From positions 2,287,519 through 2,351,518 of the forward strand of contig NW_006763294.1 in the NCBI RefSeq assembly GCF_000218685.1: DNA of 64,000 bases. Reading direction: 5' to 3'. Below the pieces are notes generated by a model. It was given only the letters and a program-made list of their open reading frames with translations. It searched no databases and was not told the origin of the DNA. Shown piece after piece: positions 4,783 through 62,815 of the stretch; the first letter of the stretch is position 1; every line of letters begins with the position of its first letter. Source of the stretch: Serpula lacrymans var. lacrymans S7.9. Its lineage: Eukaryota; Basidiomycota; Agaricomycetes; Boletales; Serpulaceae. The translations under genes were made by a program, and so were the position numbers.

Positions 4783-7453
4783 ATGCTGGATAACATGAGT
4801 GAAGACCAAACATCCGATGACTCCCTCAGCTTCTCAGATGTCAATGAGGATACTGACTACAATCCTTTCATTGCTGATGGTTTGTTTGAGCCAGATTATG
4901 ATCCACTGGCAGATAGCAACAGCTCGGAGTTCCCTTCATACACATCATCCCCCATTCAACTTGCCAACACTCACCGTTTAAAGGAGAACCTAACAGGAAG
5001 TCCCGCAGCCAAAGTTCGAGCTATCCTGGACTACATGAATTCAGTAGGCCTTGACTTACCATTATTTTTGGATTTACTTAGTTGGGATGATCACGAGTCT
5101 ATCATTGACACAAAAATCTGGTATGCAAGGACTTCGTTGATGGTCAGTGCTGAGCTTCCAGGGATTTTAAAGTGGTGGCACAAACCCCCACACACAAAAG
5201 GGACTCGCAATTCCCTTGCTCATGGAGCACAACTGGTGCTCGAAGAATTTTCCTTGTCATGTGTTGCAGACATACTCGAGGCTGAGCTGGAATCCATCAA
5301 GGACATGTGCTATTGTCCCCCAGAGGATGTTTCGGAAGAAGGCCTGACAAGCCTTTACATTGAAGACATATTGTTGAAACTGTGTAGTCCTGGTTTTGGA
5401 GGCACCCCAAAATTCTGAGCCTTGCTTCAGCGACTCAACAAAACAGCTGCACAAGAGAAACAAAACACTTTGAAGAATCCTGACTTGGTGCGTAGTACAA
5501 TCATCCAAAGCTATTACTAACACTGAATTCCCAATCACCAGGTCAATATTTCTATTACATTTCAGATCATGTTCTCGCGCTCTCATCATCACAGCCACTG
5601 GCCAAAAATGTTGACAACATTCCTTAAGTCTCAAGGCATCTCTGCAAAAAGCCTCGACCTCCTACGGACATTTTGCCTGACCATGAGCCATAAATGGTCT
5701 GTCCGGGCCATCAGTTCTATTTCTAAGAACAAGATGGATGAACTCTGTAAAATAATCCACATCCATCCCTTTGTGATATCTCACAACAACCTTAATATTC
5801 CCTTTCGTGTCTTTTCACAGCGAGTTGACAACAAAAGCCATTTTGATTCGGGAACTGCAGCTACCGTATTTTTACAACCAGGCGCTCCTCCAATTAAACC
5901 ACTCTGCAACCGTACACTACAGGAGTATTGAGCAGCTGGACGGAAGGTTCCACTCACAGTGCAAGGCATCCTACTCCTTGAACAGGCTGCAGCCTCTTCT
6001 CGTTATTCCCGTGATCTCTACCATGTTCTTCAGTGGCTCATTACTTCACCGGAATTTTCTTTTGAAACATATCAACACTGTAATGATTCAGTGTTCAACC
6101 CATCTGCTCCTGTCCAAAGACTACCATCAGGCCAACAATATATCACAAAGCAGTACATGCTGGGAACAGTACATATTGAAGAAGCCAGCTACGAAGGCAA
6201 TGAGATGCTTTTGGGCAAGTGGCTTTCCCAGCTTCGGCTGGACTCTCTTGACAAACAAAAGAAGACTGGTCTTGAACGAGTAATCCCATGGGTTGGTGAC
6301 CAGCTAACAGTGGAGCGGCTACGAGGACTTTTTAGGTTCTGTGCTCAGGATCACAATTCCTTTGACCGTTTGGACTGGCTCGTACCCATCTTTGGGTGGT
6401 TTCATTTACAGATGGCATTTGCTAACTCACGGCACAAGCAGTACTTAGGGACTACAGCTGGCCGGGGCCTTATGCATACTTTCACTTTGCTCGAAAGAAA
6501 AGGACTGGGTTTTGTGCAAACCCGAGGGCCTTTCCATCAGAATCTGCACGATGCAATCACTCAAGTTGCTGAAACACACTTTTGCGCATGTTGGACAGTT
6601 GTGGGTGAAGTAGAGACCCTGGCACATCTCCGTTGCAAATCCCCAGGCCAACTTGTCCATCTTGCAGAAGAAATTTTGAAGACACTCGCATCTAGTACTG
6701 CCTTAGAGGCCATTCACCTGCAAAGCAAAAACACACAGGACGAAGTCTTGCGTCAGAGCATCCTGTGGAATTGTGATGTGTTGAGGTATATAGATTTAGA
6801 GAGGGCCATGGAATGCGGTGATGTGGGAATAATGGAGGAGACTCTGCCCCATCTTTTGTATCGTTTTGCGGGAGGTAATAACAAAAGGTATACTATTGAA
6901 GTGCTAGAGCTACTACAATGTCTGCAGCACAAATGGCCACCAGAACTAAAGTACAGTTCTCTCGCATTTTGTTGGAATTTACTAACTTGTACTTGACAGA
7001 GACTTTGTTCTTCACAGTTGCTGGTTGATGAACACGACCGGCCACCCCCTCGGATTTCTGCCTATAGACAAAGGGCAGGAACATAATATCAAGGACACAA
7101 AGGTTACATTTGGAACTGGTGGCCCAAATGCATCTTGGGCTCTTATGAAGAAAACTTCCCCAGCCATTCCCGCACTCAGAGCTGTGCACAAGCATACAGA
7201 ACTTCAAATTCGGACGCTTTGACGAGGCCTACACCACTCTGACCCACTCAAGGAGAATGATATCGAGATCCTGCATAATGCATACATTGCCTCAAATATT
7301 CACACACAGCAGGATGGACGAGAGGTGAAGACTAAAGCAGATGGGACTATGGATGTTGTGACAAAAGGATCTTTCAACATACTCACAAAAGGGACATTGG
7401 CAAGATGGTGGAATAATAGAAGTTATGTTCGGGCAACACAGGAGATATGGTAG
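4783..7453 (+). pseudogene. DUF6589 domain protein (putative transposase of the element)
   Basis: From ATG 4783 an acidic N-terminus leads into AKVRAILDYMNSVGLDLPLF and a YARTSLMVSAELP stretch. A TGA at 5416 interrupts the frame, which continues as ALLQRLNKTAAQ. After an intron near 5488-5541 comes the DUF6589 core: a SRSHHHSHWP block, MSHKWSVRAI, NLNIPFRVFSQRVDNKSHFD near 5780-5850, a second TGA at 5929, then QYMLGTVHIEE, WVGDQLTVERLRGLF near 6290, FHLQMAFANS and a GRGLMHTF block. An intron near 6950-7018 precedes the C-terminus ending at TAG 7451. Known members are uncharacterised and multicopy in Agaricomycetes. Conserved acidic residues in the order D (VDNKSHFD), D (GDQ) and E (AETHF) would suit an RNase H-like transposase, but that is inference. 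The two stops suggest this copy is dead. Confidence 0.75.
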
Positions 7454-12325: not shown

Positions 12326-15300
12326 ATGTATCCCCATTCCTCGTCCCCAACAGGTGATCCCAATGATCCTTTCAGCTCTGCTGCCGCTGTTCCTCGCAGA
12401 TACGCATATGACAACGATTCAGACAATGTAGACTCGTATGGACGCAGAGACACCTATGCCTCAGACAGTAGTAATAATGGACTAAACGACGACCGCTATT
12501 TCGACAACAGCCCTTACGATCCTTACAGTATGTGGAGCCCACTCTCACTCCCTTTCTCATGCTCATACATCTTCTTCGCAAGCCCATCCAGACACAGATT
12601 CAGATGTCGACGTCTACGGACAGCGTTATCATCCTTCTGCAGAGTCTCTGGGTGCCTCCCGTGTAGGCATGTCGGACTCGGTTGCTACAACGTATGCCGA
12701 ATATAGTGGCCCCCCTGGTGCTCGTGAATCGTACCCAGCTTGGACCGTAGAGCGTCAAATTCCTCTTTCAAAAGAGGAAATCGAAGACATCTTTTTGGAC
12801 CTTACACAAAAATTCGGTTTCCAACGAGACTCCATGCGTAATATGGTAAGGAAGCTTCTCATTTAATCACTGCATAGATACTATCGCTCTAACTCATCTT
12901 TTTCAAGTTCGACTTCCTGATGCAATTGCTTGACAGTCGAGCATCACGTATGTCACCAAATCAGGCATTGCTTACGCTTCATGCAGACTATATCGGTGGC
13001 GAACACGCCAACTACCGTAAATGGTATTTTGCCGCTCAACTGGACCTTGATGATGCTGTAGGCCATGCCCAAAATCCCGGCATCCAGCGATTGAAATCAG
13101 TTAAGCGCAAAGGCGGTCCTCGCACCGCAAACGAAAAGTCGCTTCAGACTGCGATGGAAAGATGGCGTCAAGCAATGAACAACATGAGTCAGTACGACAG
13201 GCTGAGGCAGATTGCGCTTTATCTCCTACTATGGGGTGAGGCAGCCCAAGTTCGCTTCGTCCCTGAGTGCCTATGCTTTATCTTCAAATGCGCCGATGAT
13301 TACTATCGCTCGCCCGAATGCCAAAGTAGGGTTGATTCTGTCCCAGAAGGTCTTTATCTTCGTTCTGTGGTGAAACCTCTTTACCGCTTTATTCGAGATC
13401 AAGGATATGAAGTCATCGATGGTCGGTTCGTGCGGAGAGAAAGAGATCATGCAGAAATCATTGGTTATGATGATGTCAACCAGTTGTTCTGGTATCCCGA
13501 GGGTATTGCTCGCATTGTACTCACTGATAAAGTGAGTAGTTCCTTCGTATTTGGAAAAGCATGCTTGACACTAATAAATTGGTGTTCAGTCGAGACTTGT
13601 GGATCTTCCTCCCTCTCAGCGATTCATGAAGTTTGACCGGGTTGAATGGAATAAAGCTTTCTTCAAAACATATTACGAGAAACGGTCTTTCGGCCATCTT
13701 CTGGTCAACTTCAATCGAATCTGGGTTATCCACGTATCTCTCTACTGGTTTTACACTGCGTATAACTCGCCTTCGGTTTATGAAATTATCAGGCCAGACA
13801 ATACAGTGGTAAATTCGACGGCACTCTCATGGTCTACAACAGCGCTCGGTGGGGCTGTGGCATCTATTATCATGATCCTCGCCACGCTCGTGGAATTTTC
13901 GTACATCCCAACAACCTGGAATAACACGTCCCATCTTTCTCGTCGCCTTCTATTTTTATTCATCACGCTCGCATTGACATGTGGTCCCACATTTTACATT
14001 GCCATCGCCGAGAGTGCATCGCCTGGCGGCTCTTTGGCACTTATTCTTGGCATTGTCCAGTTTTTCATAGCGGTCGTCGCTACATTGTTATTTGCTATAA
14101 TGCCTTCCGGTCGGATGTTCGGAGACCGAGTGGCTGGAAAGTCTAGGAAATACCTGGCCAGCCAAACGTTTACTGCGAGTTACCCTGGTTTACATCGGCA
14201 GGCTCGACTGGCGTCAATTGGTCTTTGGTTCCTCGTGTTCGGCTGCAAGGCGACCGAGTCTTACTTCTTCTTGACTCTGTCTTTCCGTCAACCTATCCAG
14301 GTCATGGTCGGAATGAAGATACAAGGCTGCAATGACAAGTACTTTGGCAATGATCTCTGCACCAATCAAGCCGCTTTCACGCTGACCATCATGTACATCA
14401 TGGATCTTGTTCTGTTCTTCCTGGATACTTTCCTATGGTACATCATCTGGAACACGGTATTCAGTATTATACGGTCATTCATGCTCGGTTTGTCTATATG
14501 GACGCCATGGAAGGACATCTACACTCGTCTCCCTAAGCGGATATTTTCCAAAATGCTGGCAACTCGGGACATGGAAGTCAATTATAAGCCCAAGGTAAGC
14601 AAGTCAGGCGGTAACATGGTACGCAAACTGAACCACTTTGTATCAGGTCTTGGTGTCACAAATTTGGAATGCGATCATCATCTCGATGTATCGAGAGCAT
14701 CTGCTATCTATCGAACACGTGCAAAAGCTGTTGTATCATCAGATTGATGCTGGTCAGGAAGGCAAGCGGAGTCTTAGGGCGCCGCCGTTCTTCATTTCGC
14801 AAAGTGACAAGGGCTTCAAGGGCGAATTCTTCCCTCCTAACAGCGAAGCAGAGCGTCGTATATCTTTCTTCGCTCAGTCACTCACGACTGCCATACCCGA
14901 GCCACTTCCGGTTGATGCTATGCCCACGTTCACGGTCTTGACACCGCATTACAGTGAGAAGGTACTGGAATTTAGTCATGTCTTGTGATGTGTTGGCTGA
15001 TGTTGTTCGCTCTAGATTTTGTTGTCGTTGAGGGAAATTATTCGTGAAGAGGATCAGAACACTCGTGTAACCCTTTTGGAGTACTTGAAACAGCTTCACC
15101 CGGTCGAGTGGGACAACTTCGTCAAGGACACCAAGATTCTCGCAGAGGAATCCGCTATGTTCAATGGTACCAGTCCATTCGGGACAGACGAGAAAGGCCA
15201 GTCGAAGATGGACGATCTTCCATTCTATTGCATTGGTTTCAAGAGTGCTGCACCTGAATTCACCCTTCGAACAAGGATTTGGGCTTCCCTTCGCGCTCAG

Positions 15301-18300
15301 ACTCTTTATCGCACGGTATCTGGTATGATGAATTACTCCAAGGCGATCAAACTACTCTACCGAGTAGAGAACCCCGAAGTCGTGCAACAGTTTGGCGGAA
15401 ACACGGACAAATTGGAGCGTGAGCTCGAGCGCATGGCACGACGCAAGTTCAAGTTTGTTGTATCCATGCAACGTTACTCGAAGTTCAACAAGGAGGAGCA
15501 CGAAAATGCTGAGTTCCTTCTGCGTGCTTACCCGGATCTCCAGATCGCGTACCTTGAAGAGGAAGCTCCACGGAAGGAGGGCGGTGACCCCAGATTGTTC
15601 TCCGCTCTCATTGATGGTCATTCCGAGTTCATCCCAGAAACCGGTCGTCGTCGCCCTAAGTTCCGCATCGAGCTACCCGGAAACCCTATCCTTGGTGACG
15701 GAAAGTCAGACAACCAGAATCACGCTATCATTTTCTACCGTGGCGAATACCTACAGCTCATCGATGCCAACCAGGACAATTACCTCGAGGAGTGTCTGAA
15801 AATTCGTAACATTCTTGGCGAGTTCGAAGAGTATTCGGTGTCGACGCAGAGTCCTTACGCACAATACGGGCACAAAGAGTTCAAGAAAGCTCCCGTCGCT
15901 ATCGTCGGTGCTCGCGAGTACATCTTCTCAGAAAATATTGGTATCCTTGGTGATCTTGCTGCTGGAAAAGAACAGACATTTGGAACCTTGTCTGCCCGTG
16001 CCTGGGCTTGGATTGGTGGGAAACTCCATTACGGCCATCCCGATTTCCTCAATGGCGTATACATGAACACACGAGGAGGCATCTCAAAAGCTCAAAAAGG
16101 TCTTCATCTGAACGAGGATATTTACGCTGGTATGAATGCTTTCGGTCGCGGTGCTCGTATCAAGCATACCGAGTACTATCAGTGTGGAAAGGGTCGTGAT
16201 CTTGGCTTTGGTACGATTTTGAACTTCCAGACGAAGATCGGGACTGGTATGGGTGAACAAATGCTTTCGAGAGAGTACTACTATCTGGGTACTCAATTAC
16301 CAATTGATCGATTCCTGACATTCTACTACGGTCACCCTGGTTTCCACATTAACAACATGCTCATCATCCTTGCCGTTCAGTGCTTCGTAGTTACAAGTAA
16401 GTTTTTCCTTTGTTACTGAGTAGCTTTGCATTAATTGGTCTTCAGTGGTCTTCCTCGGAACGCTCAACTCTTCGCTCACTATATGCCAGTATACCTCAAC
16501 TGGTGGCTTTTTGCCTGATCAAGGAGGATGTTACAACCTTGTGCCTGTGTTCGACTGGATACATCGTTGTATCATTAGTATTTTCTTGGTGTTTATGATA
16601 GCTTTCTTGCCTCTGTTTATCCAAGGTATGGAGCAAGATTGATTTCATTCATCTCTACGATTCTGATTATTAATAACTTTGGCAGAATTGGTGGAGCGTG
16701 GCACGGCTAGAGCTATCATTCGCTTAGGCAAACAGTTCATGTCACTTTCCCCAGTCTTCGAGGTGTTTTCAACTCAGATCTACACGCACTCTATCATCAG
16801 TAACTTGACCTTCGGTGGTGCTCGTTACATTGCGACGGGACGTGGTTTCGCAACGACGCGTATATCTTTCAGCATCCTGTTCTCTCGCTTCGCCGGACCG
16901 AGTATTTATCTTGGTATGAGGACCTTGATTAGCCTGTTATATGTTACAATGGCTCTGTGGACTCCATACTTGATTTACTTCTGGATATCCATTCTTGCGC
17001 TCTGTGTTGCTCCTTTCTTATTCAACCCTCATCAATTTTCGTTTGCTGATTTCATCATTGACTATCGGTAAGTAATCAAGTCATATTTCTTTGGGTTGCT
17101 ACTTATGCAAACATATAATAGGGAATTCTTGCGCTGGATGTCTCGTGGTAATTCGCGATCTCATAACAACTCGTGGATTGGCTACTGCCGTATCTCTCGT
17201 ACTATGATCACTGGATACAAGAAGAAGAGGTTAGGCCTTCCATCCGAAAAACTATCTGGCGATGTTCCTCGTGCAGGATGGCGCGCTGTCATTGTTTCTG
17301 AGGTTATCTTCCCAATTGTGATGGCAATCTTGTTCATCATTGCCTACATGTTCGTGAAATCGTTCCCGGACTCCACAGGAAGATTGCCACCCAGCCCGCT
17401 GATTCGTATCGCTGTTGTTTCACTTGGACCCATCGTGTGGAACGCAGCTGTTCTTCTGATTTTGTTCGTGATATCAATATTCGTCGGGCCTATCGTGGAT
17501 CCGAAATGGCCTATGTTTGGTTCTGTCATGGCATTTATTGCTCATCTCCTCGGAGTCATCGGCATGCTTGGCTTTTTCGAATTCCTGGTTAGTTATTCCA
17601 ATGCCTACTTTATCTTATCGTGTTACTCATCTTCGAATAGTGGTTCCTTGAGACATGGAATGCATCACACGCCGTACTTGGTCTGATAGCCGTGATTGCA
17701 ATACAACGTGCCGTTCACAAGGTACTTATTGCGGTGTTCTTATCGCGTGAGTTCAAGCACGACGAGACGAATCGTGCCTGGTGGACAGGCCGATGGTACG
17801 GTCGTGGCCTTGGCTCCCATGTCATGTCGCAACCTGCCCGAGAATTCATTGTCAAGATCATCGAGCTATCGCTGTGGTGCTCAGACCTTCTGCTGGGTCA
17901 TTTCTTACTTTTCATGCTTACACCCCCGATCTTGCTCCCCTACGTCGACCGCCTACATGCCACTCTCTTATGTAAGTTTTCTCAAAAGATCTGTATTTGC
18001 TGCCATTCAACAGTTTTTAGTCTGGCTGCGTCCCTCCAAACAAATCCGTGCTCCCCTTTACACTCTCAAACAGAAGAAGCTACGTCGTTGGATAGTAAGC
18101 TATTTTCTACCTACATGATGATGCATGCGTTGACAGTATATTACAGATTATCAAATATGGATTCTTCTATGTTCTTGTCATCATCGTTTTCACTGCGCTG
18201 ATAGCCCTTCGTGAGTATCGCCCTTGTACTACTGCATGAGGATGTATGTCCTAACTCATGAATTATTTAGCTGCTGGCTTCCGTAACAGGATTTACGTTG

Positions 18301-47019: not shown

Positions 47020-48431
47020 ATGACCTCAGTAACCGATTCAGTGATATTCAGGAACATTTTCTCCAGTCCTGAATCCTCAGCGATATGGTCAGATACCACT
47101 CGCACATCCTATTACCTTCTTTTCGAATCGTCTCTTGCAATCGCACAAGCCAGACTCCATATTATCTCACAGAAAGCTGCAGATGAGATCGTGAAATTTT
47201 GCCGGGTTCAGAATATTGATTTCGAAGAGCTGAGAATACAGACCGAACAGATAGGATATCCCGTGCTAGGTGTCGTCAAGCAGATTGTGCACAATGTAAA
47301 CGCAATTGAGCCTAGTCTTGGGGAATGGGTTCATTGGGGCGCCACGACACAGGTACGTTCTATAGGCCTCATATCGTTTAGTAAACTACCCCTAGACACT
47401 GGTAATAGGACGTCACAGACACGGCCACAGTTCTGCAGCTTCGTGACACCCTCAACCTAGTATCTGAAGCATTGGACAAAATCTGTGATAGTCTACGCCT
47501 CTTGTGTGAAACACACAAAGCCACCCCGATGGCTGCTCGCAGTAATCTGCAGCAAGCAGTACCCATCACTTTCGGTTTCAAACTCGCACGGTTGTTGTCT
47601 ACGTTCTACCGCCATCGACAGCGTCTTGCAGAAATCCGCACGCGACTGCTCGTGGTCCAGTTTGGTGGAGCAGCTGGAGCATTGGCAACCATTTCAGATG
47701 GTCGTGGTTTGGAATGTCAAGAAGAATTGGCAAAGGAGCTGGGATTGGGAGTACCTGAGATAGCATGGCATACGGAACGTGATCGCATCGCAGAAGTTGG
47801 CGGATACTTCGCGCTGCTCACAGGGACGTGTTCGAAGTTCGCCTTCGATGTCAAGCTCATGATGCAAACGGAGGTAGGAGAGGTCTCTGAACCGTACTAC
47901 CCACACAGGGGTTCATCTTCGACGATGCCCCAGAAGAGAAACCCAATCTCATGCGCCTATATCACGGCCATGTCAGCCACTGTTCGTCAGCTGTCTACCG
48001 CTTTATATGAGGCCATGGTCGAAGACCACGAGAGGTCAACCGGGCCTTGGGAGATCGAATGGATCGCCCTTCCACAAATTTGCACACTGACCCATGCAAC
48101 ACTGGTAAAGACAGCCGAATTGATTGCCGGACTTGAGGTTCATCCTCCAGCTATGAAGAAAAATCTCGAGATCACCAAAGGCGCTATAGTATCTGAAGCT
48201 GTGATGATGGGTCTCGGGCCAAGCCTTGGGAGACAGGTTGCACACGATCTGGTGTACGATATATGCAGGCAAAGCGCACGACGGGACGTACCTCTGATTG
48301 ATCTTCTATTACAAGATGACAAAATCAAGCACAGTGGTTTAACGCGCTCTCTGCTAGAAAGCTTATGTGACCCTGAAAATTACCTGGGATTGTCAACCAA
48401 AATGGTGGAACGCGTATTGAATAGGTCTTGA
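47020..48431 (+). CDS. Fumarase/aspartase-superfamily lyase, PcaB-like
   Basis: Two exons (47020-47352, 47409-48431), about 451 residues. The superfamily signature loop GSSSTMPQKRNP lies near 47910; its serine is the catalytic base region. The first conserved block is WVHWGATTQ joined to DVTDTATVLQLRD, and the second is QFGGAAGALAT. The segment DHERSTGPWEIEWIALPQI resembles bacterial 3-carboxy-cis,cis-muconate cycloisomerase (PcaB) more than adenylosuccinate lyase or argininosuccinate lyase. Fungal beta-ketoadipate pathways normally use an unrelated propeller enzyme for this step, so the substrate is not certain. No disruption is seen. Confidence 0.8.
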
Positions 48432-53127: not shown

Positions 53128-55862
53128 TCAGGCATGTCTCTGCCTTTTCCGTAACGGCTCTCCTGGCCCTTCTGTGGTGGAATGGTGATATATGAGAACT
53201 TGCTATGTCACAGCAAAGCTCGGGCTGATATCAGGAACTAACCTTCAAAGACCGGCGGGGTGCGTGAAGCCTTCATCCGTTCCGTCTGTAACTGCTCCTC
53301 GTGACGCGCTTGCTGTAGTGGTAGGGGTTTTAGGGACACGAAAATTAAAGAAGTAAAGTTCACATACTCGCTATCGATCGAGCGTATCACGTGTATGACA
53401 TTGAACCAACGTTCATGAGGTCAGGATGAAACGAGCTACATACCCACTAGAAGTAAAGATGATTAGCAGTTCAAAAGTAGTTCAGATCGGTGTGTGTACT
53501 TACTTTCTGCAAAGAACGTGAAGGATAATGTATATATTAGTGCTGAACGTAGAAAGACTATAAAGCAAGCTGATTTCGTACAATCTACATATTTCCGGTC
53601 GTAGTGCGCAAAATGAATATGTTCGTAACTTTTGACGAAACGTAATGGGAAACAACAAAACATACAATCTGCGGTGCGAGGAAGTTGGTAAAAATGCTTT
53701 CGCACAATGTAAGGAATATTCCTAACCATCTTTAAGTTCAGGTTCACCGTTCACATGTAGTCAGTATTGGCTGTACGGCACGGATACTGTATGCAAGATG
53801 GGAAACTTGTGAATGAAACAGGTCCGCTGACAAGAAAAATATGCACTTACACTAGAAGATAACACACACATTGCGGGTCTTCTGATGACATGAATACAGA
53901 AGTAATGATTAGTATGCAGTCAGGAGACGACCACCAGCTTACATCCTGGAGATCGAGCAAAAATGCGACCTGTGAGTGGAAAGAGAATTTGCTAATATAA
54001 GAAGAAAGCAGCGTACATCCTGAGGTCATCAAAAGAGCAGAAGAATATATAAAAGGCTTTAGGGAGAGCCAAAGCACAACATATAAGGCAACGAAGTGAC
54101 GTACACCCTGAGAATATCAAGGTGGGCACGACAATGAGTGCGAGGTCTGGCTAAATAAGATCGAGGGCGACGTACATACTGTGAATGTCAAGGAAGGCAT
54201 GACAGTCAATGCCAATTCTGGCTAAAATAAGATCGAGAGCGACGCACAGGCTGAGAATGTCAAAGAGGGCATGACAGTCAGTGCCAAGTCTGGCTAAATA
54301 AGATCGAGAGTGACATACTCCCTAGGAACATTAAGGAGGGCATGACAGTCAGTGCCAAATCTGCTGGCTAAATAAAATCGAGAGCGACGTACTCCCTAGG
54401 AACATTAAGGAGGACATGACAGTCAGTGCCAAATCTGCCTGAATAAGATCGAGAGCGACGTACAGGCTGAGAATGTCAAGGAGGGCATAACAGTCAGTGC
54501 CAAATCTAGCTGAATAAGATCGAGAGCGACGGACTTGCTGAGAATGTCAAGGAGGGCATGACAGTCAGTGCCAAGTCTGGCTAAATAAGGTCGAGAGCGA
54601 CGTACAAACTGTGAATGTCAAGGAGGGCATGACAGTCAGTGCCAAATCTGCCTGAATAAGGTCGAGAGCGACGTACAAACTGAGAATGTCAACAAGGGCA
54701 TAGCAGTCAGTGCCAAATCTGCCTGAATAAGATCGAGAGCAACATACTCCCTGAGAATGTCAAGGAGGGCATGATAGTCAGTGCCAAATCTAGCTGAATA
54801 AAATCGAGAGGGACGTACAAACTGAGAATGTCAGGGAGGGCATGGCAGTCAGTGCCAAGTCTGGCTAAATAAGTTTGAGAGCGACGTACTTCCTGAGAAG
54901 GCCACCATGAAATCGTGGAGCGGTTAGCGGACAGTGTTCAAGTGTATTCAACAAAGATCATCACAATGTCAGTGGCAACCCTTGCATAAAGTGGAGAATG
55001 GCTACACACAGGCTATTGATAACGCATAGTAGGGCAGCAATGGTGAGCCACCTGGAAAATTTCCAGTGGAAGAATATTGGGCACATACAAGATTGTGAAA
55101 CTGTCGAAGCATAATGCCATGATCAGAAAATTCAGCAAGAAATCCAGCGTATATAAACACTTACGTTCTAAAGGGTAGAAAGCACATAAAGCCTCAGTAG
55201 AAAGCCTTACAGGAAGAATTCATTTCTTGAGTAACGCACACACTGAAACATGGAATTTCGAAACAGCAATATTTTTGATAACCGTGCAAAAGCAGATCAG
55301 AAGGTAATATGATTAGATGACTGGACAACGCACAAACTGACTCAGTAGACTCATTAGTGTTCCGCCTTTGAGATATTTGCTATGCAGATAGTACTATGTT
55401 ACTTACGTCCTGTTTGCGCAGTCATCTCCTTATAACATGTGTGTATATTGAAAATGACATACTTTCTGTGTATAGTGGATGTACATCAGCTCAGTTTCAA
55501 CGCCCTTGTTTTCAATTGACTCACTATCTGCCGAGCCAATGCACCAATAAAAATGTTGGGTCAATAATCATCTATCGCAAAATATTACCACCCACATACT
55601 AGCCACATGCCGGAGTCAAACAAAGTGGGATATCAGCATCCTCTAATGTAAGGTATAATATACGCACATTCTGAAGTGTTGTGGGTTGGGGAAAAAGATT
55701 CTCAGTGCTTCGTCATCATGAATCAGAAACAATTTCGTACTTTTGCATTCTCAATCATGTTACTGAGACTCCCTAGAGCCAAACATGAATTCTGGCGGCG
55801 TCGCAACAAGTCCTGCACCGGATTTGCGTTAGATGCATTTCACACAAGTGTTCTAACTTACC
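53128..55862 (-). other. Microexon tail: about 28 exons of 3 nt between canonical splice sites
   Basis: On the minus strand, single codons sit between an acceptor (YAG) and a donor (GTRNGT or close). Before the array: AAT 55668, TAT 55596, ATA 55525, AAA 55463, GAC 55407, TTT 55334, TGT 55240, AAC 55165, a 12-nt exon 55089-55100, and tentatively CCT 55010 (leftmost coordinates given). In the array: GAA 54890 to GGT 54105, twelve codons. After it: GAT 54017, GAT 53943, then ATT 53666, ATT 53582, AAA 53504, TGG 53444 and CGA 53368. Introns between them are 53-117 nt, mostly 55-75. Every one keeps phase 0. The stretch 53670-53942 is not resolved; it could hold a 12-nt exon and one or two longer ones. 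Microexons outside the array do not share sequence with it, only the layout. Confidence 0.65.
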
Positions 55863-57645
55863 TCAATCCGTGTCTGTAATTCTGAGCAGCGGGTTGGTAG
55901 CCCATATCGGATGGCAGTATGTATCCAAGAAGTGAATACATTGCTACTTGTGGCGAAGTTGGTTAGAGAAATGCTCAGTAAAACAGAGAAAGATGACTCG
56001 GAATGGTAATTCTCCCAACCATCAACAGCCTTTTGGAGATGGTCCAGACAGTTCTGGAATGCATACCGCAAGGGCGCATTTGTAAACCAAAAGAGGTCCC
56101 CGTTTCTCTGCATGATATTCAGGCAACATATTGCAATGGAAGCATGACAATGAGAGGGGTTAGTGAAATAGACACCCGAGCGTGATTCTGTCATTAGAAA
56201 ATCTCGGAGCGATATGTGGGTTAGGTGCACCGGACTGTCGTCGGCTTCGGGAATAAGGAGAATGGACTGAATTCCGAGAAAGGACCTGACAAGGTTTCGT
56301 GGCGGTACATCCATCAGGAGAGCAAGGTCTTGGATGGACAGCGGGTATTCAAGACATAACAGGAATCCCATTGCCCACATGAGGTCAACCACAGTTCCAG
56401 GTGCAACTTCCGAAAATAAAGCCTTGGAGAAAACTTGCTTATACAGAGGATCCAGGCCATGTGCCTCCAAGGCATCTAGAAGTCGTTGGTTCGCCATCCC
56501 CCCCGCTTGCTGAACAAAGTTGACGAATGTCGATGCATAGATATAGGACCCATTAGCTTTATGGACCAGGGTGTTAAGGACGTCCCAAGAAGGCCAAGGC
56601 TCTGATACACAATCCGCAACCATGAGTAGGCGATTGGCGGCATATATATTGGCAAATTCAGACTCAAAGAACATGTGAATGTCCGCTCCAGTGTTGTAAT
56701 GCTGCAGCTTCAGCTGAAGGGAGACCTCCTTGGCATCTATGGTTTCAAGTTTTAACCGAAGATGTTCTTCGACTCTACTTGTGATGAATAATCGAAACGG
56801 GACCCGGTCTCCCTTGGACCTGCATGCCTCAATGACAGCGTCGATAAACTTATCCATTGATTCTCCGTCCCCAATTTCACACTCGTCGAGGGCATCAATA
56901 ACTATCACCATGGGTTTTTGTACGACACCGTTCTGCGTGGATGTTGAGCGTGCATGGGAAAGCATGGGGGCCATGATCAATTTATCAAATTGATAGCTGA
57001 GTGAAGTATCCCGATGAGTGAGAAAGGGCTCTTCAACGAGGGCATTTTCTATCAGCGGCTTGATGGTTTTGATACAGGTCGACAGCTGAAAAGTCAGAGT
57101 AGGAATTAAATGGGATATATTATCCCGGTTTCCTGTTCCCCGAAAGAAGAAAAAACTGGCGGCAAGCCTCCGTTCCCTAGCACACCACTCTGCTACGCTC
57201 TGCGCTATGGTCGACTTCCCAAAGCCAGCCGGGCCATTAAGCCAGCATATTGGGATAGCACCATCTACCCATGTTTTGATGTCGTTTAAGACACATTCTC
57301 GAGTGCCTACCAAGCATCGAGCCCGTTTACCTGAGCGGTCTTCGTACGAAGCACGAACCGGCTGTAGCAGGTCGTATAAGCGTTGAGGAGCTAATTACGA
57401 AGATTGAACTCGTGGTCATAAACAGATAAATCCCACGCACGGCCAGAAGCAAAACTATTGTTGATATTGAATCTCAGTCCCGAATTTCCAGAAGTATCGA
57501 TGAATGTGCCATATGGAATGTGGGTGTTGTTGGCCCCAGTAAATATGCCTGGACCAATAGTGGGCGGTAGAGAGGCATGGCCATTGGGATGGTTAGGACC
57601 TTCGCCGTCATTGGAAGCTGTAACTGCGGCTTGTGTTGATGACAC
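53128..57645 (-). CDS. NACHT-domain NLR-like protein with a C-terminal microexon tail
   Basis: Proposed model from ATG 57645 (MSSTQAAVTASNDGEG). Exon 1 ends at 57441; a 50-nt intron (57391-57440) joins it in frame to the NACHT exon 55862-57390. That exon carries a CLVGTRECVLNDIKTWVDG linker, Walker A ICWLNGPAGFGKSTIAQ near 57215, Walker B VMVIVIDALDEC-type segment near 56890, a sensor-like LFITSRVEEHL near 56750 and a helical region to TRIE. Fungal NACHT proteins of this kind act in non-self recognition and cell death. The donor GTAAGT at 55861 leads to a 24-codon exon (55741-55812) and then to the microexon tail described separately, ending in exons 53243-53312 and 53128-53171. Total about 675 residues. 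The NACHT part is secure; the start (another ATG lies at 57731) and the tail are model-based. Confidence 0.75.
54105..54892 (-). repeat. Tandem array of 71-bp units (68-nt intron plus one codon)
   Basis: Eleven tandem units of 71-74 bp. On the minus strand each begins GTACGTCGCTCTCGATCTTA (variants GTATGT, GTGCGT, GTCCGT) and ends GACATTCTCAG or GTTCCTAG, followed by one codon. In transcript order the codons are GAA, TTT, GGA, TTT, TTT, CAA, CCT, GGA, GGA, CCT, TAT, GGT. Intron parts are nearly identical to each other. A diverged relative of the unit continues to about 54017. Confidence 0.9.
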
Positions 57646-61518: not shown

Positions 61519-62815
61519 CTACCATATCTCCTGTGTTGCCCGAACATAACTTCTATTATTCCACCATCTTGCCAATGTCCCTTTTGTGAGTATGTTGAAA
61601 GATCCTTTCGTCACAACATCCATAGTCCCATCTGCTTTAGTCTTCACCTCTCGTCCATCCTGCTGTGTGTGAATATTTGAGGCAATGTATGCATTATGCA
61701 GGATCTTGATATCCTTCTCCTTGAGTGGGTCAGAGTGGTGTAGGCCTCGTTGAAGCGTCCAAATTTGAAGTTCTGTATGCTTGCGCACAGCTCTGAGTGT
61801 GGGAATGGCTGGGGAAGTTTTCTTCATAAGAGCCCAAGATACATTTGGGCCACGAGTTCCAAATGTAACCTTTGTGTCCTTGATATTATGTTCCTGCCCT
61901 TTGTCTATAGGCAGAAATCCGAGGGGGTGGCCGGTCGTGTTCATCAACCAGCAACTGTGAAGAACAAAGTCTCTGTCAAGTACAAGTTAGTAAATTCCAA
62001 CAAAATGCGAGAGAACTGTACTTTAGTTCTGGTGGCCATTCGTGCTGCAGACATTGTAGTAGCTCTAGCACTTCAATAGTATACCTTTTGTTATTACCTC
62101 CCGCAAAACGATACAAAAGATGGGGCAGAGTCTCCTCCATTATTCCCACATCACCGCATTCCATGGCCCTCTCTAAATCTATATACCTCAACACATCACG
62201 ATTCCACAAGATGCTCTGACGCAAGACTTTGTCCTGTGTGTTTTTGCTTTGCAGGTGAATGGCCTCTAAGGCAGTACTAGATGCGAGTGTCTTCAAAATT
62301 TCTTCTGCAAGATGGAAAAATTGGCCTGGGGATTTGCAACGGAGATGTGCCAGGGTCTCTACTTCACCCACAACTGTCCAACATGCGCAAAAGTGTGCTT
62401 CAGCAACTTGAGTGATTGCATCATGCAGATTCTGATGGAAAGGCCCTTGGGTTTGCACAAAACCCAGTCCTTTTCTTTCGAGCAAAGTGAAAGCATGCAT
62501 AAGGCCCCGGCCAGCTGTAGTCCCTAAGTACTGCTTGTGCAGTGAGTTAGCAAATGCCATCTGTAAATGAAACCACCCAAAGATGGGTACGAGCCAGTCC
62601 AAACGGTCAAAGGAATTGTGATCCTGAGCACGGAACCTAAAAAGTCCTCGTAGCCGCTCCACTGTTAGCTGGTCACCAACCCATGGGATTACTCGTTCAA
62701 GACCAGTCTTCTTATGTTCGTCAAGAGAGTCCAGCCGAAGCTGGGAAAACCACTTGCCCAAAAGCATCTCATTGCCTTCATAGCTGCCTTCTTCAATATG
62801 TACTGTTCCCAGCAT
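61519..62815 (-). pseudogene. DUF6589 gene, 5'-truncated copy
   Basis: Carries the C-terminal part of the DUF6589 protein from QYMLGTVHIEE-equivalent sequence to the stop at 61519. The N-terminal half is gone, cut at about 62819 by unrelated sequence. The part present is cleaner than the left copy: RFRAQDHNSFDRLDW and NSLHKQYLGTTAG agree better with the family. The last exon (NTTGHPLGFLPIDKGQEHNI) reads through to the stop without interruption after an intron near 61953-62020. Confidence 0.8.

What the first reader, a model, noticed from the sequence alone, without database searches (positions are those of the whole stretch)
53128..55862. An NLR gene whose C-terminus is assembled from about 28 three-nucleotide exons
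Downstream of the NACHT exon the minus strand repeats one layout about 28 times: YAG, three bases, then GTRNGT, with 53-117 nt in between. All exons are multiples of 3 and phase 0. Units outside the tandem array (for example AAA at 53504, TGG at 53444, CGA at 53368, GAC at 55407) share no sequence with the array or each other, yet keep donor, acceptor and spacing. Random drift would not preserve that. The chain ends in two ordinary exons (53243-53312, 53128-53171) coding for a charged tail and a stop. Single-codon exons are known as rarities; a serial run of them in an immune-type gene is not something I know to be described.
Basis: partly seen in the sequence, partly recalled or inferred. Interest (0 to 1): 0.95.

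Follow-up and report, generated by a model that had tools for sequence, protein, structure and literature searches.

The report
Receptor gene with single-codon exons
A dry-rot-fungus immune-type receptor gene appears to build its tail from about 28 exons of one codon each, and the codons in its repeated stretch change much faster than the introns around them; a similar arrangement was already reported in a truffle, but here it turns up in a mushroom-group fungus where the gene models had missed it.

Summary
On the minus strand 28 three-base exons (29 with one weak candidate) and two 12-base exons lie between a 72-nt exon and two ordinary tail exons. A splice parser with no exon-length preference picks 3 nt for 205 of 243 exons over nine loci (shuffles: 31 of 1367). 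Ten loci of one NACHT family in this Serpula genome carry such chains. End codons are conserved across paralogues, partly through synonymous changes. Array codons are hypervariable: in 42 disjoint closest unit pairs the triplets differ at 70 sites against 21.8 for random intron triplets, and none of 32 codon differences is synonymous. None of 205 triplets is a stop; 7.5 are expected. One paralogue keeps 16 sites in introns hardly more alike than shuffles. Seven of eight Serpula gene models end at or just inside the chain. Joined codons in relatives' proteins are suggestive only; no Serpula RNA was available. The kind is known: reviews report dozens of alternatively spliced 3-bp exons in Tuber melanosporum NACHT-ANK genes (Iotti 2012). 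New, as far as I could search: a basidiomycete, no ANK found, hypervariable codons inside homogenised introns.

The parts
55862..57390 (-). NACHT/STAND exon (509 codons after a 2-nt split codon), donor GTAAGT
   Evidence: Pfam NPHP3_N 3.2e-25 and NACHT 6.2e-07; open frame; P0001 = SERLA73DRAFT_105666 matches 100%
55741..55812 (-). 72-nt exon, phase 0: DLLRRRQNSCLALGSLSNMIENAK
   Evidence: translation; homologous stretch in the paralogues
55165..55670 (-). eight single-copy 3-nt exons: AAT 55670, TAT 55598, ATA 55527, AAA 55465, GAC 55409, TTT 55336, TGT 55242, AAC 55167 (first base, reading down)
   Evidence: parser; aligned sites in paralogues
55089..55100 (-). 12-nt exon TTTCACAATCTT (FHNL); FYDI, FHHI, FHSL, FHNF in L009, L011, L012, L010
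   Evidence: parser
55010..55012 (-). 3-nt exon CCT
54098..54899 (-). 71-bp tandem array; each unit = one intron plus one 3-nt exon: GAA 54892, TTT, GGA, TTT, TTT, CAA, CCT, GGA, GGA, CCT, TAT, GGT 54107
   Evidence: TRF; parser
53943..54019 (-). 3-nt exons GAT 54019 and GAT 53945
53870..53881 (-). 12-nt exon AAGACCCGCAAT (KTRN)
   Evidence: read from sequence; homologous 12-mers picked by the parser in L009 (KLRE), L015 (EIRK), L016 (VLRE); in the window, L010 and L011 the parser picked longer exons here
53727..53729 (-). tentative 3-nt exon ATG (weak acceptor AAG and donor GTTAGG)
   Evidence: aligns by eye with a CTT or ATG site in L013-L015; weak
53368..53668 (-). 3-nt exons ATT 53668, ATT 53584, AAA 53506, TGG 53446, CGA 53370
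   Evidence: AAA/GAA, TGG and CGN conserved across paralogues. The parser skipped ATT 53668, which is a strict match
53243..53312 (-). 70-nt exon coding for a charged tail
   Evidence: starts after CAG in 9 of 9 loci; open with the same phase in 6 of 9 (window, L009, L010, L013, L014, L016); other phase in L011, L012 and L015, the last with a stop
53128..53171 (-). last exon with TGA stop

Best explanation
This is a NACHT-type STAND receptor gene whose C-terminal segment is encoded one residue at a time. Each intron (mostly 53-117 nt) has its own donor and acceptor, many with a branch-site motif, and is followed by a 3-nt phase-0 exon. After one intron is removed, the next donor lies three bases downstream, so the spliceosome adds one codon per step; this stepwise order is inferred. 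The product is a NACHT protein with a short peptide (NYIKDFCNFHNL-PEFGFFQPGGPYG-DDKTRNMIIKWR in the window if every candidate exon is used) and a charged tail. The ends of the peptide are conserved; the middle, encoded by the tandem array, is hypervariable. The array gains and loses units, presumably by unequal exchange; whatever the unit length, each unit changes the protein by exactly one residue and can be skipped without a frameshift. I think the variable peptide is the ligand-facing part of the receptor, in the place that WD40, ANK or TPR repeats take in other fungal NLRs. Shown: layout, coding signature, opposite evolutionary regimes at ends and middle, paralogue conservation. Inferred: splicing in vivo, alternative inclusion, ligand recognition.
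For: Parser with recalled generic splice matrices and exon length 1-30 equally likely: 205 of 243 exons are 3 nt and 8 are 12 nt; shuffled controls 31 of 1367; path scores +9.1 to +63.8 against -4.1 to -119.2. With lengths to 100: 118 of 185 are 3 nt. Stops: 0 of 205 triplets against 7.5 expected, and 26 of 321 at YAG-NNN-GT places lacking the donor consensus. Array hypervariability: 42 disjoint closest pairs, mean intron difference 0.174, positions 1+2 differ 50 of 84 and position 3 20 of 42; 0 of 5000 random draws reach the sum; 0 of 32 codon differences synonymous. Ends, by eye in nine aligned loci: K/E 9, W 8, R 8 (CGA, CGC, CGG), D 7 (GAC or GAT), F 7. L018: 16 sites in introns hardly more alike than shuffles (0.504 against 0.490). 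Six distant NACHT loci have no chain. Stops in all frames exclude direct coding. Of eight Serpula gene models, three end by reading into the first intron (P0001, P0003, P0004), one into the next (P0002), and two (P0005, P0006) splice exactly onto the first microexon's acceptor in L017 and then read through its donor. In relatives, P0144 continues LEKKDF after exon 2 (P 0.0008) and P0010 ends its tail in VTKNHIHTWR (44 of 100000 random decapeptides score as high).
Against: No RNA. Splice matrices were recalled. P0010's first residues (P 0.37) and P0076 (P 0.44) give no support. 24 of 85610 windows in the other proteins score as high as P0010's decapeptide, which was chosen after looking. Several paralogues are damaged: stops in the NACHT pieces of L012 and L014, L010 apart from its NACHT part, the TGG site of L010 changed and its donor lost. 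The tail exon changes phase in L011, L012 and L015, with a stop in L015. L017 has an intact NACHT frame with almost no chain. Ten of the 42 closest pairs have identical codons, six of them in L015. Position 3 is also faster than the introns, so part of the hypervariability may be mutational or due to exchange; and in random pairs from the pool only 2.7% of different codons are synonymous, so finding none in 32 is expected under any strong codon turnover.
Confidence: 0.85

Rival explanations
1. The working gene ends after the NACHT exon, as most gene models have it, and the chain downstream is a relic or untranslated region whose splice sites persist because the units were copied recently.
For: Gene models end there; several paralogues are damaged; L017 has lost the chain and keeps an intact NACHT frame.
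Against: L018 keeps 16 sites in mutually dissimilar introns; end triplets and splice sites are more conserved than the rest (0.83-0.88 against 0.70); no stops in 205 triplets.
Confidence: 0.08
2. One long intron removed by recursive splicing: the paired acceptor and donor are ratchet points, and the triplets are mostly not retained.
For: Most acceptors in the chain have a donor 3 nt downstream; the layout resembles ratchet sites.
Against: Known ratchet points have acceptor and donor abutting (recalled). A spacer that is nearly always 3 nt, stop-free, with conserved or fast-changing codons, points to coding. Ratcheting through 3-nt exons would in any case add the triplets.
Confidence: 0.05
3. 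Intron-driven origin: the units are a local intron proliferation (introner-like or by tandem duplication), and the codons are incidental.
For: Array introns are much alike within a locus; fungal introner-like elements exist (PMC4457414, search listing with start of abstract).
Against: DNA searches found these introns only in this NACHT family (only best candidates are scored). Triplets differ about three times as often as intron triplets. It could still explain how the array arose.
Confidence: 0.05
4. The array directly encodes a 24-residue protein repeat.
For: 72-bp units in L013 give a 151-aa open frame; one public gene model (P0007) reads array sequence as coding.
Against: Unit lengths vary (71-74 bp in the window's array); each frame of all nine chains holds 17-64 stops.
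Confidence: 0.01

Closest known systems
Tuber melanosporum nank (NACHT-ANK) family with 3-bp microexons (Iotti et al. 2012, Fungal Biol 116:261; not held)
   Same: NACHT receptor family; tens or dozens of codon-sized exons; proposed to diversify the recognition region (passages in PMC3689799, PMC4986451, PMC10197012, PMC9815663)
   Different: Ascomycete; ANK repeats; alternative splicing reported. Here a basidiomycete, no ANK found in the 511-aa query, no transcripts; a tandem array with hypervariable codons. The original paper was not seen, so gene layouts were not compared.
Fungal NLRs with highly conserved WD40/ANK/TPR repeats
   Same: Tandem repeats kept alike and shuffled by recombination to vary the sensor (passages in PMC4986451 and PMC10197012)
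   Different: There the repeat is protein; here it is an intron, and only one codon per unit would reach the protein.
Microexons in Phanerochaete chrysosporium P450 genes (PMC1184071, passages)
   Same: Small exons in a basidiomycete
   Different: Shortest is 6 bp (2-10 aa); no serial single-codon run described in the passages seen.
Schistosoma micro-exon genes and aphid BICYCLE genes (recalled)
   Same: Runs of small symmetric exons that can be skipped in frame
   Different: Mostly longer exons, secreted proteins, animals.
Introner-like elements
   Same: Near-identical introns multiplied
   Different: Scattered over many genes (recalled); here local and, in my searches, confined to one family.
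Recursive (ratchet) splice sites (recalled)
   Same: Acceptor closely followed by donor
   Different: Abutting in the known cases; here a fixed codon between.

Membership tests
Fungal NACHT/STAND receptor | NACHT nucleotide-binding domain | tested here: met
   Pfam NPHP3_N 89.7 bits and NACHT 29.8 bits, both above cut-off; GPAGFGKST stretch in P0001
Fungal NACHT/STAND receptor | C-terminal WD40, ANK or TPR repeats (common, not universal) | tested here: not met
   none in the 511-aa query; the predicted remainder is a 24-residue exon, a 36- or 37-residue peptide and a 37-residue tail; the model of relative P0010 is confident to about residue 515 and low after 518
Fungal NACHT/STAND receptor | N-terminal effector domain | not tested
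   the upstream exons were not scanned
Tuber nank-type microexon NLR | serial 3-bp exons in a NACHT gene | tested here: met
   at sequence level only:
Tuber nank-type microexon NLR | ANK repeats | tested here: not met
Tuber nank-type microexon NLR | alternative splicing seen in cDNA | not testable with these tools
   no RNA data held
Tuber nank-type microexon NLR | common descent of the array | not testable with these tools
   no Tuber genome is among the collections; original paper not held
Introner-like element | same intron in many unrelated genes | tested here: not met
   DNA queries matched only this NACHT family, with the stated limit that only best candidates are scored
Recursive splice site | abutting acceptor and donor, no retained sequence | tested here: not met

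The most novel reading that the evidence does not exclude
A receptor diversification system in which the tandem repeat needed for DNA recombination is spliced away and only one hypervariable codon per cassette is kept. Recombination among near-identical introns, plus in-frame skipping of any subset, would make large peptide repertoires without frame cost. It would be widespread in Agaricomycetes, where many NACHT proteins that seem to lack a tail would then be annotation errors. The triplets may be exchanged or diversified as whole codons: pairs such as TTT/CAA and TTT/GGA lie in flanking introns only 7-8% different.
Probability: 0.45. Interest if true: 0.9.

Novelty: new variant of a known kind. 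Interest (0 to 1): 0.75.

Why it matters
If these exons are spliced, the recognition end of a fungal NLR family has been missing from the public gene models, which in Serpula end at or just inside the chain. It would put codon-sized exon arrays in both ascomycetes and basidiomycetes, either old or invented twice. And it offers a natural test bed for how a spliceosome handles dozens of consecutive 3-nt exons, and for selection acting on one codon per repeat.

Tried and rejected
Direct coding by the repeat: rejected, stops in all frames. A 10-nt exon near 53.8 kb (TATCCGTGCC) was considered and dropped because it would put a stop in the following codons; this was read by eye. The parser mis-parsed 53.7-53.9 kb of the window (28-nt and 16-nt picks in place of the 12-nt exon and of ATT 53668), so those exons rest on strict matches and paralogues. 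Scans of bacterial/archaeal and viral collections found no relative, as expected for a fungal gene. A protein search with the C-terminal 103 residues of P0010 found only itself. Rfam: no match in the window at gathering threshold. Splice-site invariance is partly by construction, since units were chosen by the consensus; only the triplet result there counts. The branch-site count (122 of 219 introns with CTRAY against 26.3 in shuffles) is inflated, because the parser rewards branch sites. Not all 46 NACHT matches were fetched: 19 regions were taken in all. One search timed out with no output and was redone more simply. In one search the hand-made list doubles ATT 53584 in place of ATT 53668; the peptide is the same.

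Full report
What was checked. The window lies at G000:C5:2287519-2351518. The NACHT exon matches SERLA73DRAFT_105666 of Serpula lacrymans at 100%, so the genome is that species or a very near strain. YAG-NNN-GTRNGY occurs 40 times in the window against 12.3 expected, 26 of them on the minus strand in 53362-55673. Parser and reading by eye give 28 three-nt exons, one further weak candidate, and two 12-nt exons. The flanking ordinary exons (55812-55741; 53312-53243; 53171-53128) are in frame with a phase-0 chain and end in a stop. Chain introns are 53-117 nt except one of 201 nt, which the weak ATG exon would divide.

Is it more than repeat copying? The 71-bp array explains 12 of the exons by duplication, so the other evidence matters more. 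A DNA search found paralogous loci in the same genome. All eight regions fetched from it carry 16-39 consensus sites on the matching strand and 0-2 on the other. A further NACHT relative, L018, carries 15 strict chained sites and one weaker one, which makes ten loci with the window. L017 keeps two sites and then runs into the last exon, as if the array were deleted. L010 lacks a NACHT frame, and a broken NACHT piece lies about 13 kb upstream on the same strand (L019), which suggests one split gene. Six NACHT loci of 29-38% identity (L021, L022, L024-L027) have no chained site; L019 and L020 have none, L023 two on each strand. In L018 the introns are hardly more alike than shuffled sequence (mean 0.504 against 0.490, maximum 0.600 against 0.565), yet donor, acceptor and a 3-nt spacer persist 16 times. 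Recent copying cannot explain that.

Unbiased exon length. A dynamic-programming parser with recalled generic donor, acceptor and branch matrices, and all exon lengths from 1 to 30 equally likely, chose 243 exons over nine loci (L018 not included): 205 of exactly 3 nt, 8 of 12 nt, no other length more than four times. Markov-resampled versions (75 of 90 gave a path) chose 31 of 1367 exons of 3 nt; real scores were +9.1 to +63.8 against -4.1 to -119.2. With lengths up to 100, 118 of 185 were 3 nt; most of the rest there were stretches that swallowed one intron.

Coding signature. None of the 205 triplets is a stop; 7.5 are expected from position-specific base use. YAG-NNN-GT places in the fetched loci without the donor consensus have 26 stops in 321. 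A looser pool of 214 triplets also had none. Triplets share ancestry, so these counts are not independent. Single-copy codons at the two ends are conserved across paralogues and vary synonymously or conservatively. By eye in nine loci: K or E in 9, W in 8 (L010 has CGG), R in 8 with CGA, CGC or CGG (L014 has CTG), D in 7 as GAC or GAT, F as TTT in 7. L018, outside that alignment, has CCT and TTT in the last two places. In a 330-nt alignment of nine loci, mean column conservation is 0.852 for triplets, 0.880 for YAG, 0.828 for GTRNG and 0.703 for the rest. The charged tail exon follows a CAG acceptor in 9 of 9 loci; it is open and in the window's phase in 6 of 9, and in another phase in L011, L012 and L015, the last with a stop.

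The array evolves the other way. In six of eight arrays, codon positions 1-2 are the most variable adjacent pair of 55 in the unit; in L010 and L014 five pairs are as variable or more; L016 had too few units. Among 72 nearest-neighbour pairs, positions 1+2 differ 88 times against 23.9 expected at the intron rate, and position 3 differs 35 times against 12.0; 2 of 58 codon differences are synonymous. In 42 disjoint pairs the sum is 70 against 21.8 for random intron triplets (maximum 41 in 5000 draws), with 32 codon differences, none synonymous, and 10 pairs with identical codons, six of them in L015. Position 3 is raised too, and random codon pairs from the pool are synonymous only 2.7% of the time. 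So the data show rapid codon turnover, and do not by themselves separate selection from a mutational or exchange process. Pairs such as TTT/CAA with 7% intron difference and TTT/GGA with 8% suggest whole codons that are older than the homogenised introns around them.

Gene models and relatives. Of the eight Serpula models listed, P0001, P0003 and P0004 end by reading into the first intron and P0002 into the intron after exon 2. P0005 and P0006 splice onto the first microexon's TAG acceptor in L017 (TTT = F) and then read through its donor (VRIVLVSCINH, stop). P0008 ends inside the NACHT frame of L018, and P0007 continues into array sequence. Whether any of these rests on transcripts is not known. 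Many environmental and Piloderma relatives end in what looks like an intron, by eye; I did not count them, and only the best 120 of 658 and of 687 hits were listed. A few proteins have exon 1 joined to exon 2 and then continue: P0010 LDTVGWST...VTKNHIHTWRNNQHK, P0144 LEKKDF..., P0156 LDIN then VC, P0076 LD then VR. VC and VR are what GTATGT and GTGCGT donors would read. Tested against Serpula columns: P0144 P 0.0008, P0156 P 0.0097, P0010 end 44 of 100000, but P0010 front P 0.37 and P0076 P 0.44; 24 of 85610 windows of the other proteins score as high as the P0010 end. These segments were chosen after looking, the Serpula rows were typed by hand and include weak sites, and that the sequences are cDNA is my inference. 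I count this as suggestive. A model of P0010 (30-row alignment, mean pLDDT 84.4) is confident up to the exon 2 helix and below 50 from residue 518, which fits a flexible peptide with no repeat domain.

Compared with what is known. Passages in PMC3689799, PMC4986451, PMC10197012 and PMC9815663 describe tens or dozens of codon-sized or 3-bp microexons, alternatively spliced, in the NACHT-ANK family of Tuber melanosporum, citing Iotti et al. 2012. That paper is not held, so I saw only how others describe it. This removes the claim that the kind is undescribed. PMC11121469 (passages, one from the abstract) says functional microexons had not been described in filamentous fungi. Microexons of 2-10 residues are reported in P450 genes of the basidiomycete Phanerochaete chrysosporium (PMC1184071, passages). 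Seven searches aimed at such exons listed no basidiomycete case of serial single-codon exons, and a search for Serpula with NACHT and gene structure listed none either; I saw listings, and the library lacks most subscription papers.

Conclusion. The layout is real, looks coding by comparative criteria, and persists in a way that copying alone does not explain. The most likely working is stepwise splicing of one codon per intron into a short, variable receptor tail. Splicing in vivo, alternative inclusion and ligand binding remain to be shown.

Noticed in passing
L010 and L019 (C6, about 2524.8-2542.0 kb): A microexon array without NACHT lies about 13 kb downstream of a broken NACHT copy on the same strand, as if one gene were split by an insertion; the stretch between was not read through.
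   Followed up: partly
L017 3127-3420: A paralogue with an intact NACHT frame but only two microexons before the last exon: apparently a natural array deletion. Public models P0005 and P0006 of this locus use the first microexon's acceptor.
   Followed up: partly
window 5959-6996 (+) and 61976-62815 (-): Two DUF6589 open frames (Pfam PF20231), on opposite strands near the two ends of the window.
   Followed up: no
window 12920-16419 (+): 1,3-beta-glucan synthase gene (FKS1 domains and Glucan_synthase).
   Followed up: no
window 47472-48431 (+): Adenylosuccinate-lyase-like gene (Lyase_1, ADSL_C).
   Followed up: no
P0144 (protein, last 42 residues): After LEKKDF the tail is a long charged stretch ending CCTPPEFCC without the WR end; unclear whether microexons are skipped or the family differs.
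   Followed up: no
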